From Paenibacillus sp. IHBB 10380 (GTDB taxonomy: Bacteria > Bacillota > Bacilli > Paenibacillales > Paenibacillaceae): a stretch of DNA of 64,000 nucleotides. The notes beneath the pieces are model-generated. The model was not told the DNA's origin and ran no database searches. It saw only the letters and a program-made list of their open reading frames with translations. Position numbers and translations under genes: made by a program. The stretch is from positions 1,798,001 through 1,862,000 of the forward strand of contig NZ_CP010976.1 of NCBI RefSeq assembly GCF_000949425.1, read 5' to 3'. This document shows, piece by piece, positions 9,716 to 14,272 of this stretch (the first letter of the stretch is position 1; each line of letters starts with the position of its first letter).

Positions 9716-10200
9716 ATGACGGTGCTCGGGGATTGGAACCAGAGTATATTCATTCATGATAAGGCAAGCGCTAGCATAGGCACATTGAATTCGTTATATG
9801 GGGATAAGGTCACTGAGACTTTCATATTAACGCGAAGCTATCGCTCGGCACGGCAAATAGTCGAGTTTACGCATGCATTAATCGAAGGAGGGGAGACGAT
9901 TGAACCGTTCAACCGAGAAGGCAAAAAAGCAACCTTAAAGCAATTAGCCGATACAACGGAACTTGTATGCAAAGTTGCAGAAAGCGTTCAAGACTTTCAG
10001 GTGGAAGGGTATAGGACGATTGCGGTTATATGCAAAACAGCGAATGAGAGCAAAGAAGCTTACGAAGCATTGAAGGACATGATTAAGGTGAGGCTGATTG
10101 GGAAAGAAACGGATTCCTTTCAGGCAGGTATACTGCTATCTAGCCAAAGGAATAGAATTTGATGCTGTTGTTATTTTTAACGCTTCTCAAACGCATCTAA
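9716..10200 (+). pseudogene. Internal fragment of a HelD-like superfamily I helicase, frameshifted
   Basis: The frame opens with MTVLGDWNQSIFIHD, the motif III region of UvrD/HelD-type ATPases (LGD.NQSIY), and continues through FILTRSYRSARQIVEF, a canonical helicase motif IV. Near 10135 the frame breaks. The next conserved stretch, LAKGIEFDAVVIFNASQ, is read in a different frame and homology ends near 10200. The Walker A half and the C-terminus are both missing. HelD recycles stalled RNA polymerase in Gram-positives. The fragment stops about 20 bases before a dif-like site at 10220. Confidence 0.8.
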
Positions 10201-10219: not shown

Positions 10220-10247
10220 AGTTTACATAAAAATAATTATGTAAACT
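10220..10247. repeat. dif-like 28-bp site A (11-6-11)
   Basis: Left arm AGTTTACATAA (10220-10230), spacer AAATAA (10231-10236), right arm TTATGTAAACT (10237-10247). The arms are perfect inverted copies. As I recall the B. subtilis dif site, its XerD-binding arm is exactly TTATGTAAACT; here both arms are of that type. The arms are identical to those of site B at 12013. Confidence 0.65.
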
Positions 10248-10292
10248 CATGTTCGCTAGAATCTTTTTTTGAGATAACTCAGAGCAACGTCT

Positions 10293-10338
10293 AACACTAA
10301 AGGGTATCCTCCATTAATGGAAGATACCCTTTAGTGTT
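10293..10338. terminator. 16-bp hairpin at the 3' end of the MFS gene
   Basis: AACACTAAAGGGTATC (10293-10308) pairs perfectly with GATACCCTTTAGTGTT (10323-10338). It lies just beyond the stop of the minus-strand transporter. The T-run is weak in both directions, so it may act as terminator or as mRNA 3' protection. Confidence 0.65.
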
Positions 10339-10348
10339 GTTATCAAAA

Positions 10349-11569
10349 TTATCCACTTACCTCTTTATCTTTAGGTAGAAATATCGCTAAAATACCGAGT
10401 AACGGTAGGTAGGCTGAGAGATTCATAATAAAATCGATACTTGTCTGATCTGCTACCTTACCCATGACGGCGGAACCTAGTCCACCAAGACCGAAGGCTA
10501 ATCCGAAAAATAGTCCCGAAATTAAACCGATTTTATTAGGTAATAGTTCCTGAGCATAGACTACAATAATCGAAAAAGCTGACGATAATACAAAGCCTGC
10601 ACAAATACTAAGCAAGGTAACGTAGACTAAGGAAACATGTGGCAGTAAAAGAGAGAAGGGGGCAGTTCCTAAGATAGACAACCAAATAATATTACGTCGC
10701 CCGAATCGATCAGATAATGGGCCTCCTATAAAGGTACCTGCTGCTGATGCTGCTAGAAAGGCGAATAAAAACCACTGTGCGTGCTGTACCGTCATCCCGA
10801 ATTTATCAATTAAGAAGAATGTGTAATAGGAAGAAATACTCGATATGTACACATGCTTGGAGAAAACAAGAAATACAAGGATGACGATAGCCCATATGAC
10901 TTGTGAGCGACTTAATCCCGTCTTAGAGGTTTCTGTCGTTTTAGTCTTTTTGATGGAGCGTGTGATCACAGGTTGAATACTATACCATTTCGCAACGTAA
11001 TATTGGATCGCAATGGCAGCAACGGCAGCTATCGTAAACCAAATCACGCCGAACTGTCCTAAATGGACAAAAATGAGTGCCGTCATGATGGGGCCTAACG
11101 AAGATCCAATATTTCCCCCAACTTGGAAAATCGACTGTGATAGACCTCTTCTGCCTCCACTAGCTAAATAGGCAACACGAGATGATTCTGGGTGAAAAAT
11201 AGCTGAGCCAATACCCATCGCAATGACTGCAAGCACAACAATGAGGAAATTAGGAGCTACGGATAAAGCTATGATTCCGAGTAAGGTAAAGCATACGCCA
11301 AAAGGTAATATGTAAGGTCGCGGTCGAATGTCTGAATATATCCCTACAACAGGTTGCAACATAGACGCTGTAATATTCATAGCGAATGCAATTAAACCGA
11401 TTTGACTGAACGTTAAGTTCATGGAATCTTTAATGATGGGAAATAGGGCAGAGACGGTTGATTGCATAGAGTCATTCAATAAATGAACAATACTGATAGC
11501 AAACAGAATCGGATATACGGTTGTTGAAGGTGAAGCAATAGGTGCTGTCTGTGTGTCTGATCTGGCCAA
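10349..11569 (-). CDS. MFS efflux transporter, fosmidomycin-resistance (Fsr) type
   Basis: A 406-residue major facilitator with 12 predicted helices. The region AIFHPESSRVAYLASGGRRGLSQ matches the signature of Fsr-like MFS exporters, and GPLSDRFGRRNI is the A-like motif of the second half. The Fsr family exports antibiotics such as fosmidomycin; the real substrate is unknown. Start is TTG at 11569 because AGGAGG sits 8 bases upstream; an in-frame ATG at 11632 lacks a site. It lies between dif-like sites A and B and is transcribed leftwards as a single gene. Confidence 0.88.
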   Translation of the reverse strand: MARSDTQTAPIASPSTTVYPILFAISIVHLLNDSMQSTVSALFPIIKDSMNLTFSQIGLIAFAMNITASMLQPVVGIYSDIRPRPYILPFGVCFTLLGIIALSVAPNFLIVVLAVIAMGIGSAIFHPESSRVAYLASGGRRGLSQSIFQVGGNIGSSLGPIMTALIFVHLGQFGVIWFTIAAVAAIAIQYYVAKWYSIQPVITRSIKKTKTTETSKTGLSRSQVIWAIVILVFLVFSKHVYISSISSYYTFFLIDKFGMTVQHAQWFLFAFLAASAAGTFIGGPLSDRFGRRNIIWLSILGTAPFSLLLPHVSLVYVTLLSICAGFVLSSAFSIIVVYAQELLPNKIGLISGLFFGLAFGLGGLGSAVMGKVADQTSIDFIMNLSAYLPLLGILAIFLPKDKEVSG

Positions 11570-11670
11570 AACGAATACCTCCTGAATGATGTTACATTTA
11601 CCTATTATCCTTAAAATCGTTGTTTTTGTCACTCATTATATTTAGTGATATACGAATTTCATAAGTTAAA

Positions 11671-11702
11671 AAACAGCGTATAACATAAATTATACGCTGT
11701 TT
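11671..11702 (-). terminator. Hairpin with minus-strand T-run (also 11-6-11 in layout)
   Basis: AAACAGCGTATAA (11671-11683) pairs with TTATACGCTGTTT (11690-11702) around a 6-base loop. On the minus strand a run of six Ts follows, so it is a good terminator for the lactonase gene upstream. The inner 11-6-11 geometry, with arms ending TATAA/TTATA, also recalls a dif XerC arm; see findings. Confidence 0.7.
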
Positions 11703-12001
11703 CGATTGTGAGCAATCAGAATGCTCATCGTCGGACAAGAGATAAGCTTATTCGGTGCAAAAATAAGTATATAAATACAAATACTAGATGTATAAATTGA
11801 TGGCTATTTTCTTTGATTAAAATTGGAGATAAGAAAGTGGGTTAGAGATTCAAAATATCGAAAAGACTTAATAGAGAATTTCAGATTAGGGGGAACGAGA
11901 AGAAGGGGTAGCGAAGATGAGAAGTTCTGAATTTTAGGAATAAAAGGAAGTCGTATATTCTCATAAGTCATTCGTAATAATTTTGAGCATATAAGTAAAA
12001 C
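11703..12001. other. Intergenic region, no gene recognised
   Basis: About 300 AT-rich bases between the hairpin at 11671 and the 50-bp palindrome at 12002. A minus-strand frame of 68 codons exists here, but it has no ribosome binding site or recognisable family and is not called. Confidence 0.45.
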
Positions 12002-12051
12002 GAACAACATAAAGTTTACATAATATATATTATGTAAACTTTATGTTGTTC
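12002..12051. repeat. 50-bp perfect palindrome containing dif-like site B (12013-12040)
   Basis: The two 25-base halves are exact reverse complements with no loop. The core at 12013-12040 has left arm AGTTTACATAA, spacer TATATA and right arm TTATGTAAACT. Spacer plus right arm (17 bases) match the B. subtilis dif site as I recall it; the left arm is a second XerD-type arm instead of the XerC arm. Outside the core, AACAACATAA and its complement TTATGTTGTT extend the symmetry. Confidence 0.7.
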
Positions 12052-12073
12052 CGATCTCAATTTATAGGGATGA

Positions 12074-12829
12074 TCAAAGAAATTCGGGAAAAGTCCGCTG
12101 TTGTTTTGCTTGTTCCAGATCATGTCCAAAGAAAATAAGTGAAGGTCGTATCTCTTGTGCTTTTTGTTTCATATTACGGATCGACTGTATTGCCAATTCA
12201 AAATCAGACGAAGCGAAGGGGACTAGATGTTCATAATTTTCTTGGGTATAGGCGAGATCAATCGTAAGTAATACCGGACCGGACTTCTCTGTAGTGACAA
12301 GTACAGACTGGTGTCCTGGCGAATGGCCTGGAGTAAATAATAACTGGATACCTGGCGCAACTTCATAATCTCCTTCAATTGGATGATATTGCAAATCCGG
12401 TTGAATACACTCAGGTGGAGCATAGTTTGGATTATTAATAGCTGCTTCCAGCTCTGCTTTTTGCACATAAATAGGTGTATTCGGAAAATAAGGGTTGCCT
12501 CCTGCGTGATCCATATGTAGATGAGAATTAATCACGGCTTGAATATCACTAATCTCGTAACCGGCCTTTTTGATGAGGTTTCTTATATGATCTTTTTGCT
12601 CCATTTCGGGAAGGAATTGGCCTTCTAAGGGAGTTCCATTAAAATAATCCGGATTCCCAATAAACGAATCTGGCATTCCAGTATCGACTATAATGGGTCC
12701 ATCCTTAGTCTCAAGCAGAAAGGACCAGATCGGGAGTTTGACCATCCTACCGGGTGAAAGATTCACATTTAGCGCAGAGTGATCTAAAAATAGATATCCT
12801 GACGGTAACCAGTGCAATTTTTTTATCAT
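12074..12829 (-). CDS. aiiA: AiiA-type N-acyl homoserine lactonase
   Basis: A metallo-beta-lactamase-fold enzyme that hydrolyses the lactone ring of acyl-homoserine lactone signals (quorum quenching). It follows Bacillus AiiA almost end to end. All zinc ligands are visible: SHLHMDHAGG gives H103, H105, D107 and H108; TPGHSPGH gives H169; TIDLAYT gives D191 and catalytic Y194; FFGHD gives H236. With the start at the ATG at 12829 the protein has 251 residues, against 250 for AiiA. A longer frame from 12874 adds 15 residues that AiiA lacks. It lies between dif-like sites B and C and is transcribed away from the recombinase gene. Confidence 0.92.
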   Translation of the reverse strand: MIKKLHWLPSGYLFLDHSALNVNLSPGRMVKLPIWSFLLETKDGPIIVDTGMPDSFIGNPDYFNGTPLEGQFLPEMEQKDHIRNLIKKAGYEISDIQAVINSHLHMDHAGGNPYFPNTPIYVQKAELEAAINNPNYAPPECIQPDLQYHPIEGDYEVAPGIQLLFTPGHSPGHQSVLVTTEKSGPVLLTIDLAYTQENYEHLVPFASSDFELAIQSIRNMKQKAQEIRPSLIFFGHDLEQAKQQRTFPEFL

Positions 12830-13293
12830 TGGATATTCACTGCCTTTCTTGGAATGATGATTAGGGTACTTCATTTACCTATATTTAGTATGTTAATTAA
12901 TTACATAATAACATACTTTTATTGTAAATGATCGTTTATTGGATGTCATTGGCTGGAATCAATTTTCTGCATATTACATCGGTTAATTCTAAAATTTGTC
13001 ACATTATAAAACCGCTGAATTCTCTTGAATGAGTGTAGAAAATCTAACAGTTGCATATGTGAATTAAGAAGTAAGCAAACAACCACAATAGACCTTGTCT
13101 TTCAAGGAACTTCGTGCGGTTGGTTGGCGTTTATCTACTTTCCTTGTCATTTGTTCTAGAGTATCAGATAATAGATTCATTGAAAAAATAGAATGATCGG
13201 AATCATATCCATACGATAAACCGATGATCTTTCCTAATTAGGAGGTCCATACTCGGTACATAGGTTGTCATAAACTAGGGGAGGGGCGATGGC
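12830..13293. other. Divergent intergenic region with an imperfect stem-loop
   Basis: Separates aiiA from the recombinase and must hold both promoters. CCTTG (13093-13097) pairs with CAAGG (13103-13107), nested in a looser pairing of CAAACAACC with GGTTGGTTG. The half-site AATTACATAA near 12899 resembles one dif arm. No ORF is seen. Confidence 0.4.
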
Positions 13294-14229
13294 GTGAACG
13301 ATCTGAATGAAGACTACGACGAAGAACTGGATGCTTTTCTGATCTGGATGAAGGATGCCGGCTACACCTCCTATACGCAGAAGTCCTATCTGGCTGACGT
13401 GAGGCAGTTTCTGGAAAGCCTGAATGGCAAGAAGCTGGAAGCTGTTAAAAAGCTGCATGTGGTATCTTTTCTTTCCTCTGTACGTGAGCGTGGGGTAAGC
13501 GACACTACACGTAACCGTAAACATGCTTCAGTTAGCTGTTTCTTCAAAGCGCTGATTGAACTAGAGCTCCATACAGGGAATCCTGCGGAAGGAATTAAGA
13601 AGTCGAAGACTGATAAGAACCGTGCCCCTGTGTTTCTCGATGAAAGTGACTTAGCTAACTTTATACATTCTATTGAAGGAAAGTACAAGCTGAGGAATAC
13701 AGCTATTTTTCTCCTTATGGGTTATATGGGGCTTCGTGTAGGTGAAGTGAATGCCTTGAATGTCAATGATTTCAATCCAGAGAGAAGCACGCTTGCCGTA
13801 TTTGGTAAAGGGCGTAAGTGGCGAACACTTCCAGTTCCTGAATTTGTGAACAATATATTGCAACAAGCTTTAGCGGAGAGGTTAGAACCATGGCGAGCGA
13901 AGGAAGATGGAATGTTCGTATCCCAAAAAGGGCGGAGACTTTCCATACGTAATATTCAGCAGATTGCTGCTGACTCTTTTGACCATTTTCAAAGTGGAAC
14001 GCCTCAATTTCAAAGAATCCCTTATTCGAGCCATAAGCTACGACATTCTTTTGCCACTATGTTACTACGTAAAGGTGCTGACCTGCGCACGGTGCAGGAG
14101 TTACTTGGGCATTCCTCAATTCAAACAACGACTGTGTATACACATATTACGAGTCGTGAGAAGGAAGAGGCCATGGCTAGATTGAGCGTAGAGCTTCCTA
14201 TATTACAGTCTAATCATTCTAATAAATAG
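13294..14229 (+). CDS. XerC/XerD-like tyrosine recombinase
   Basis: A 311-residue site-specific recombinase with an N-terminal SAM-like core-binding domain (residues about 8-95) and a C-terminal catalytic domain. The full active site is visible: R148 (MGLRVGEVN), K172 (GKGRKWR), H247 and R250 ([10 protein letters not shown]), H273 (LGHSS) and the nucleophile Y282 (TVYTH). Length and layout match XerC/XerD/CodV rather than longer phage integrases. Start is GTG at 13294 after a GGGGAGGGG purine run. Its 5' part uses more GC-rich codons (CTG, GGC) than neighbouring genes. It lies between dif-like sites B and C and ends 15 bases before site C, suggesting it acts on these sites (inference). Confidence 0.9.
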
Positions 14230-14244
14230 TTTGGTTAGAGTCAT

Positions 14245-14272
14245 GGTTAACATAACTAATATTATGTAATCT
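14245..14272. repeat. dif-like 28-bp site C (11-6-11, degenerate)
   Basis: Left arm GGTTAACATAA (14245-14255), spacer CTAATA (14256-14261), right arm TTATGTAATCT (14262-14272). The inner 6 bases of the left arm (ACATAA) and inner 8 of the right arm (TTATGTAA) equal those of sites A and B; the outer bases differ. It starts 15 bases after the recombinase stop codon. Confidence 0.55.

What the first reader, a model, noticed from the sequence alone, without database searches (positions are those of the whole stretch)
10220..14272. Three dif-like 28-bp sites bracketing an efflux pump, a quorum-quenching lactonase and a Xer-type recombinase
Seen directly: sites at 10220-10247, 12013-12040 and 14245-14272 all have an 11-bp arm, a 6-bp spacer and an 11-bp inverted arm. 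Sites A and B have identical arms (AGTTTACATAA and TTATGTAAACT); site C is degenerate. Known: this is Xer/dif geometry, and TTATGTAAACT is the XerD arm of B. subtilis dif as I recall it. Unlike dif, both arms are XerD-like, which could suit one recombinase acting alone. A complete XerC/XerD-like recombinase lies between B and C. Inference: two modules (A-B with the MFS pump, B-C with aiiA plus recombinase) could move by site-specific recombination, like the p-dif modules of Acinetobacter plasmids. I know of no such chromosomal modules in Paenibacillus.
Basis: partly seen in the sequence, partly recalled or inferred. Interest (0 to 1): 0.85.

Follow-up and report, generated by a model that had tools for sequence, protein, structure and literature searches.

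The report
XerD-type palindromes marking replication terminus
The three look-alike DNA palindromes are most likely docking sites for the protein XerD that mark where chromosome copying ends, probably where it strips DNA-folding SMC rings off the chromosome, rather than edges of mobile gene cassettes.

Summary
The three 28-bp sites are real. A fourth lies 2.2 kb left of the window; no other copy at up to 3 mismatches exists in the 5.79-Mb genome. Both arms match the XerD half of B. subtilis dif. Sites occur in 86 of 100 same-genus genomes and, in exact form, in 52 Paenibacillus, 26 Streptococcus/Lactococcus/Gemella and 28 other stretches; streptococcal ones cluster near xerS. The array is near the terminus: GC-skew switch and RTP Ter-like motifs. 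XerC is over cut-off in 0 of 61 genomes; XerD persists but lacks a catalytic arginine in 9 of 20, this one included. Best explanation: XerD-binding sites of the kind where XerD unloads SMC in B. subtilis; binding and unloading are inferred. Mobile modules are not supported: 169 of 174 mappable sites keep position in relatives, 53 of 57 length differences of 1 kb or more add no site, spacers are unmatched. The neighbouring recombinase is intact, but 7 of 9 genomes without it keep sites (one equals its control).

The parts
10220..10247 (.). Site A: palindromic pair of XerD half-sites, spacer AAATAA
   Evidence: 0 mismatches to AGTTTACATAA-N6-TTATGTAAACT
12013..12040 (.). Site B: palindromic pair of XerD half-sites, spacer TATATA
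   Evidence: 0 mismatches; core of a 50-bp perfect palindrome 12002-12051
14245..14272 (.). Site C: degenerate site starting 16 bp after the recombinase stop codon, spacer CTAATA
   Evidence: 3 mismatches to the strict pattern; 1 mismatch when W/Y variants seen across the genus are allowed
13294..14229 (+). Further Xer-family tyrosine recombinase (311 aa), catalytic motifs intact, conserved beside the array in the genus
   Evidence: match at E<=1e-60 in 91 of 100 genomes, 64% identity or more in 85; catalytic motifs intact in 41 of 41 orthologues checked; below cut-offs of XerC/XerD/XerA/XerS
10349..11632 (-). MFS transporter between sites A and B (neighbouring gene, not part of the proposed mechanism)
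   Evidence: PF07690, 162.6 bits; no NCBIfam family above cut-off
12074..12874 (-). AiiA-type N-acyl homoserine lactonase between sites B and C (neighbouring gene)
   Evidence: NF045699, 405.8 bits against cut-off 375

Best explanation
The palindromes are multi-copy binding sites for XerD at the replication terminus, each made of two XerD half-sites facing each other, of the kind at which XerD unloads SMC complexes in B. subtilis. XerD, encoded elsewhere (fur-xerD-deoB), would bind both arms as a dimer. SMC rings that travel from the origin and reach the terminus would be released there, without strand exchange, so spacers are free to vary. In this genus XerC is not found and XerD has lost catalytic residues in several species. 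Chromosome dimer resolution has probably passed to XerS, encoded at the left edge of the same region. Shown here: sequence, copy number, terminus location, positional conservation, no XerC over cut-off, XerD catalytic changes, XerS presence. Inferred: that XerD is the binder, that SMC is unloaded, and what XerS does.
For: Both arms equal the XerD arm of B. subtilis dif. The four sites are the only copies at up to 3 mismatches in the genome. The array is about 0.1-0.2 Mb from the GC-skew switch in this genome and within about 0.4 Mb of it in the two others sampled, G057 and G054; the recombinase beside it lies at 0.4-0.6 of the contig in 26 of 31 near-complete single contigs (contigs assumed to start near the origin). 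RTP Ter-like motifs lie beside it, one on each side of the fourth site; across the genus such motifs form two blocks of opposite orientation, one often next to rtp. In 26 close pairs 169 of 174 mappable sites keep position. In 74 orthologous site pairs arms are 92% identical, spacers 75%, flanks 54-55% (arms biased upward because sites were chosen by their arms). XerC is over cut-off in 0 of 61 genomes, and 60 of 61 show one XerC/D-like match at E<=1e-80, not two. XerD is over cut-off in this genome with Arg-to-Lys and His-to-Tyr at catalytic positions of 1A0P; Arg-to-Lys in 9 of 20 genomes read. XerS is over cut-off in 98 of 100. In 8 of 8 Streptococcus/Lactococcus/Gemella genomes the XerD-like protein has lost four of six catalytic residues and is followed by scpA, in four confirmed with Pfam (the others read by eye), and these genomes carry the palindromes. 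Citing papers state that XerD unloads SMC near the B. subtilis terminus: PMC8242196, PMC12322038 (both: site- or sequence-specific), PMC8357415, and PMC9733580 for S. aureus as likely (passages).
Against: No binding or unloading was tested. The primary paper (Karaboja 2021) is not held, so the B. subtilis XerD-site sequence was not compared. 14 of 100 genomes have no site at up to 3 mismatches of the strict pattern, though two of them that I fetched, G086 and G087, have relaxed ones; G004 has none in the 40 kb fetched. A catalytically intact recombinase is conserved beside the array, and in 13 of 41 regions a site lies within about 60 bp of its 3' end, which this explanation does not account for. 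11 of 20 XerD proteins keep the arginine. 28 of 106 exact matches are in other groups, mostly metagenome bins and Clostridia, where neither terminus nor XerD was examined. Of the 26 lactic and Gemella stretches only 11 hold a full xerS match; the others were not checked further, apart from those sharing a genome.
Confidence: 0.74

Rival explanations
1. The palindromes are recombination sites of the neighbouring recombinase, which acts alone at both arms (as XerS or XerH do on their sites), for example to resolve chromosome dimers at the terminus.
For: The recombinase is intact in 41 of 41 regions and sits beside the array; a site lies within about 60 bp of its 3' end in 13 of 41; the terminus location suits dimer resolution.
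Against: 7 of 9 genomes without it (none at E<=1e-60) keep sites (G024's single site equals its control). Streptococci have the arrays near XerS instead. Several sites per genome with unmatched spacers would not suit resolution at one point.
Confidence: 0.13
2. Mobile modules: segments between sites are captured and lost as units by Xer recombination, like p-dif modules.
For: Variable genes lie between sites across the genus. One relative, G098, carries an extra site with a second copy of a transporter-like gene next to it.
Against: 169 of 174 mappable sites keep position; 53 of 57 length differences of 1 kb or more add no site. Homology often ends at a site on one side only, and a conserved site in fast-evolving intergenic DNA would give that picture anyway. 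Spacers are unmatched. No XerC over cut-off.
Confidence: 0.05
3. The palindromes are binding or exchange sites of XerS.
For: XerS is encoded near the array in Paenibacillus and in several streptococcal loci.
Against: In 5 of 6 streptococcal/lactococcal loci read, a separate sequence with both published difSL arms lies upstream of xerS (a variant in the sixth, L172), while the palindromes lie elsewhere (arms as quoted in PMC5357621).
Confidence: 0.04
4. They are ordinary transcription terminators.
For: Gaps holding sites are convergent more often than all gaps (49 of 126 sites against 255 of 1066 gaps). Site B scores as a terminator-like hairpin on the minus strand.
Against: Sites A and C do not score as terminators. 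Stems are A+T-rich, the letters are conserved across genera, and no copy at up to 3 mismatches exists elsewhere in the genome.
Confidence: 0.04

Closest known systems
XerD-dependent SMC unloading sites of B. subtilis (Karaboja et al. 2021; paper not held, known here from four citing papers; the name XDS is recalled)
   Same: XerD half-site sequence, terminus location; more than one site and no need for XerC (these two features of the B. subtilis sites are recalled)
   Different: Here no XerC is found over cut-off in the genus, XerD has lost a catalytic arginine in 9 of 20 species, and sites sit beside xerS, RTP Ter-like motifs and a further recombinase; the B. subtilis site sequence itself was not compared
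dif of XerCD (B. subtilis, E. coli)
   Same: 28 bp, 11-6-11 layout, right arm and terminus location
   Different: Both arms are XerD-type; several copies; variable spacers; no XerC over cut-off
XerS/difSL of streptococci and lactococci
   Same: Terminus location beside xerS; XerS present in Paenibacillus
   Different: difSL has other arms and an 11-bp centre (PMC5357621, passages); the palindromes are separate from it in the same loci
p-dif modules of Acinetobacter (PMC6449649, PMC13141974 and chromosomal ones PMC12907356; listing and abstract beginnings only)
   Same: Several dif-like sites with accessory genes between them
   Different: No XerC arm, no unit-wise gain or loss with an added site, positions fixed between related species

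Membership tests
XDS (XerD-binding SMC unloading sites) | XerD half-site sequence | tested here: met
   Both arms equal the XerD arm of B. subtilis dif
XDS (XerD-binding SMC unloading sites) | Located in the replication terminus | tested here: met
   GC-skew switch in three genomes and RTP Ter-like motifs
XDS (XerD-binding SMC unloading sites) | XerD and SMC-ScpAB encoded | tested here: inconclusive
   XerD found; smc/scpAB not searched in Paenibacillus; scpA, and scpB where the stretch reaches, follow xerD in streptococci and Gemella
XDS (XerD-binding SMC unloading sites) | XerD binds and SMC is released there | not testable with these tools
   Needs ChIP-seq
XDS (XerD-binding SMC unloading sites) | Similarity to the B. 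subtilis site sequence | not tested
   Paper not held and no B. subtilis genome reachable by name
p-dif / dif modules | Segments gained or lost as units bounded by sites | tested here: not met
   (species level; strains of one species not compared)
p-dif / dif modules | XerC and XerD arms with both recombinases | tested here: not met
   Two XerD-type arms; XerC over cut-off in 0 of 61 genomes
XerS/difSL | difSL arm sequence (TTTCCGAAAA / TTTTCTTGAAA) | tested here: not met
   Arms differ (PMC5357621 passage)
Intrinsic terminators | G+C-rich stem followed by T run, genome-wide use | tested here: not met
   Only site B scores; copies confined to one region
XerC / XerD / XerA / XerS equivalogs (gene 13294) | Score above the NCBIfam cut-off | tested here: not met
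   197.1 vs 335.15; 175.6 vs 329.6; 170.3 vs 220; 109 vs 267

The most novel reading that the evidence does not exclude
In Paenibacillus and in streptococci XerD is ceasing, or has ceased, to be a recombinase and has become a dedicated terminus protein that acts at arrays of double XerD half-sites, while dimer resolution moved to XerS and XerC was lost. The Paenibacillus terminus then holds one assembled locus: RTP Ter sites, xerS, the XerD array and a further, still intact Xer recombinase of unknown target.
Probability: 0.45. Interest if true: 0.75.

Novelty: new variant of a known kind. Interest (0 to 1): 0.6.

Why it matters
If right, these lineages are natural separation-of-function cases for XerD: recombination partner lost, catalytic residues eroding, DNA sites kept. 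That would make it testable with natural proteins whether SMC unloading is an independent role of XerD kept by selection. The array is also a simple sequence marker for the terminus in Paenibacillus and some streptococcal genomes. It also warns that dif-like sites with accessory genes between them need not be mobile modules.

Tried and rejected
Mobile modules, terminators and a B. subtilis-like dif (0 of 100 genomes at up to 3 mismatches) were tested and not supported. Breakpoints that seemed to fall exactly at site edges were rejected as evidence: reading them showed the site to be the only conserved stretch in fast-changing intergenic DNA, so homology ends there anyway. A conserved stretch upstream of xerS was looked at as a possible XerS target; it is not present in all and was not pursued. 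The motif TATTGTGAATTTTTCATATGNTGAAAT was first taken for a XerS target, then read as RTP Ter-like when it proved to lie in two blocks of opposite orientation and next to rtp. Five viral contigs held the exact site; the one whose frames I listed (L266) looks like a tailed phage by eye, and none of the five matched the recombinase or XerS. Literature: search 8 (dif modules, Xer, Paenibacillus) 0 papers; search 48 (XDS terms) 0; search 71 (RTP, Paenibacillus, Ter sites) 0; search 72 (Paenibacillus and XerS) 0; one search gave 17 and one search gave 5, of which PMC8242196, PMC9733580, PMC12322038 and PMC8357415 were seen in passages; one search gave 6, of which PMC5357621 and PMC3025954 were seen in passages.
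Full report
Observation. In the whole genome (G000, 5.79 Mb; the window is C1:1798001-1862000) the only further copy at up to 3 mismatches is perfect and lies at 1795754, just left of the window. TTATGTAAACT is the right half of B. subtilis dif as printed in PMC3025954 (passages); the left arm is its inverse, so both arms are XerD-type.

Spread. Of 100 genomes of the genus searched, 86 have at least one site; the reversed-pattern control had one match in each of 4 genomes (the list of places was cut at G038). The exact form AGTTWACATAA-N6-TTATGTWAACT gives 106 stretches in the collection of 84,980 species (titles of all): by my count 52 Paenibacillus, 18 Streptococcus, 3 Lactococcus, 5 Gemella and 28 others (Clostridia, Bacillaceae, one Cohnella, metagenome bins). 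Of the 26 lactic and Gemella stretches (up to 8 kb each), 11 hold a full xerS-like match and one a partial match. Fourteen genomes behind such loci were searched with up to 3 mismatches. In seven of the eight lactic and Gemella ones all sites lie on one contig (G105 has just one site; G106 has two sites on two contigs); in the five Streptococcus genomes and the Gemella genome there are 2-6 sites within about 7-17 kb, with a xerS-like gene in the stretch. The other six, Bacillaceae and Clostridia, have 1-4 sites each; one, G113, also has 2 control matches.

The neighbouring recombinase. The 13294 protein has a match at E<=1e-60 in 91 of 100 genomes (85 at 64% identity or more, two of these partial). 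I fetched 40 kb around it from 40 of these genomes, chosen for long contigs, and with the own region examined 41. Sites at up to 2 mismatches of the relaxed arms occur in 40 of 41 regions, 126 in all, 5 of them inside predicted frames. They lie mainly on its 5' side; in 13 of 41 one lies within about 60 bp of its 3' end. Catalytic motifs are intact in 41 of 41. It scores below the XerC, XerD, XerA and XerS cut-offs. Nine genomes have no match at 1e-60; 7 of them still have sites, mostly with 2-3 mismatches and more dispersed, and in one of the 7, G024, the single site equals its control.

Terminus. GC skew of 20-kb samples of the own genome turns from plus to minus between 1.90 and 1.98 Mb; the array is at 1.796-1.812 Mb. 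In G057 the switch lies between 3.52 and 3.90 Mb and the array at about 3.70-3.73 Mb; in G054 the switch lies between 3.52 and 3.75 Mb and the recombinase at 3.94 Mb. In 31 of the 40 fetched genomes with near-complete contigs the recombinase lies at 0.4-0.6 of the contig in 26 (contig starts taken to be near the origin). A second motif, TATTGTGAATTTTTCATATGNTGAAAT, occurs in 98 of 100 genomes at up to 3 mismatches with no control match (list of places cut at G039). In 16 of 17 listed genomes whose copies fall on one large contig, the copies there form two blocks of opposite orientation; G020 does not fit. The replication terminator protein RTP is over cut-off in 60 of 61 genomes, and in 22 of the 24 genomes present in both lists a motif copy lies about 160-350 bp from rtp (not in G005 and G007). 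I read the motif as an RTP Ter site (inference). In the own genome two copies lie at 1795618 and 1796932, on either side of the fourth palindrome; its four opposite copies were counted but their places were not listed, and rtp is at 2777643.

Which Xer proteins. XerD is encoded between fur and deoB (flanking genes read by eye), the setting I recall for B. subtilis ripX. XerC is over cut-off in 0 of 61 genomes, and 60 of 61 show exactly one XerC/D-like match at E<=1e-80 (the control search rang in five genomes, B. subtilis among them, over the cut-off in two that were not named, so a XerC below cut-off is not wholly excluded). XerS is over cut-off in 98 of 100; the own copy is at the left edge of the region. 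Against the E. coli XerD structure 1A0P, the own XerD has lysine for the catalytic arginine and tyrosine for a catalytic histidine (the naming of catalytic positions is recalled). Arg-to-Lys holds in 9 of 20 genomes, the 20 best-scoring loci (19, the twentieth, L294, where a second catalytic histidine is also changed); 11 keep the arginine. In seven streptococcal and lactococcal genomes the XerD-like gene is over the cut-off of its own family. In all seven and in Gemella four of six catalytic positions are changed in an alignment, and scpA follows: Pfam confirms ScpA in four of four stretches scanned and ScpB in three of three, the rest was read by eye.

Modules or fixed sites. Among 26 pairs of the 41 regions with 86% identity or more, 192 site instances were considered: 18 could not be mapped, 169 of the remaining 174 have a site at the same place in the relative. 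57 length differences of at least 1 kb (not independent) were found; 53 do not change the site number; three of the other four concern a weak second site in G078 and one a duplication in G098. Spacer identity within genomes is as in permutations (10 of 168 against 8.46, P 0.33); orthologous sites keep arms (92%) better than spacers (75%) and flanks (54-55%), with the caution that sites were picked by their arms.

Reading. That XerD unloads SMC near the B. subtilis terminus is stated in passages of PMC8242196, PMC12322038 and PMC8357415, and for S. aureus as likely in PMC9733580. The original paper is not held; that it names the sites XDS is recalled. The palindromes have what such sites need: XerD arms, several copies, terminus location, tolerance of spacer change, and persistence where XerC is not found and XerD is eroding. 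I therefore take them for XerD-binding, XDS-like sites. That XerD binds them and that SMC leaves there is inference. What the further recombinase does remains open. I found nothing in print on Paenibacillus XerS or dif modules in searches. The mended counts of the check (9 of 20 instead of 8 of 19; wider spread outside the main groups) did not call for other odds.

Noticed in passing
own genome C1:1795618 and 1796932 (2382 and 1068 bp left of window start); genus-wide: Motif TTTTCTATTGTGAATTTTTCATATGnTGAAATTTT: core in 98 of 100 genomes, two blocks of opposite orientation in 16 of 17 genomes that could be judged, and 160-350 bp from rtp in 22 of 24: probably RTP Ter sites of a replication fork trap.
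   Followed up: partly
genus-wide; own xerD in L038:1489-2400: XerC over cut-off in 0 of 61 genomes and XerD with a lost catalytic arginine in 9 of 20.
   Followed up: partly
L308-L315: XerD-like gene with four of six catalytic residues changed directly before scpA/scpB in streptococci, lactococci and Gemella.
   Followed up: partly
G032 C2:309605, G065 C1:164366, G069 C12:402860: A nearly identical asymmetric site TTTTTTCATAAWTTATATTATGTAAACT, once per genome, in three genomes that lack the 13294 orthologue: a candidate true dif.
   Followed up: no
12002-12051: 50-bp perfect palindrome around site B; such long palindromes are unusual in a chromosome (recalled).
   Followed up: no
9716-10162: Fragment of a HelD-like RNA polymerase recycling helicase (profile 575-715 of 779), apparently a gene remnant.
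   Followed up: no
G098 (L083, L084): Two copies of a transporter-like gene (MFS by eye), each directly beside a palindrome, 7.3 kb apart: the one case that looks like a duplicated site-bounded unit.
   Followed up: partly
L193, L203, L213; L194, L229: A palindrome about 10-20 bp behind the xerS stop codon in three streptococci and about 100 bp behind a XerS-like gene in two Anaerobacillus contigs, much as behind the Paenibacillus recombinase.
   Followed up: no
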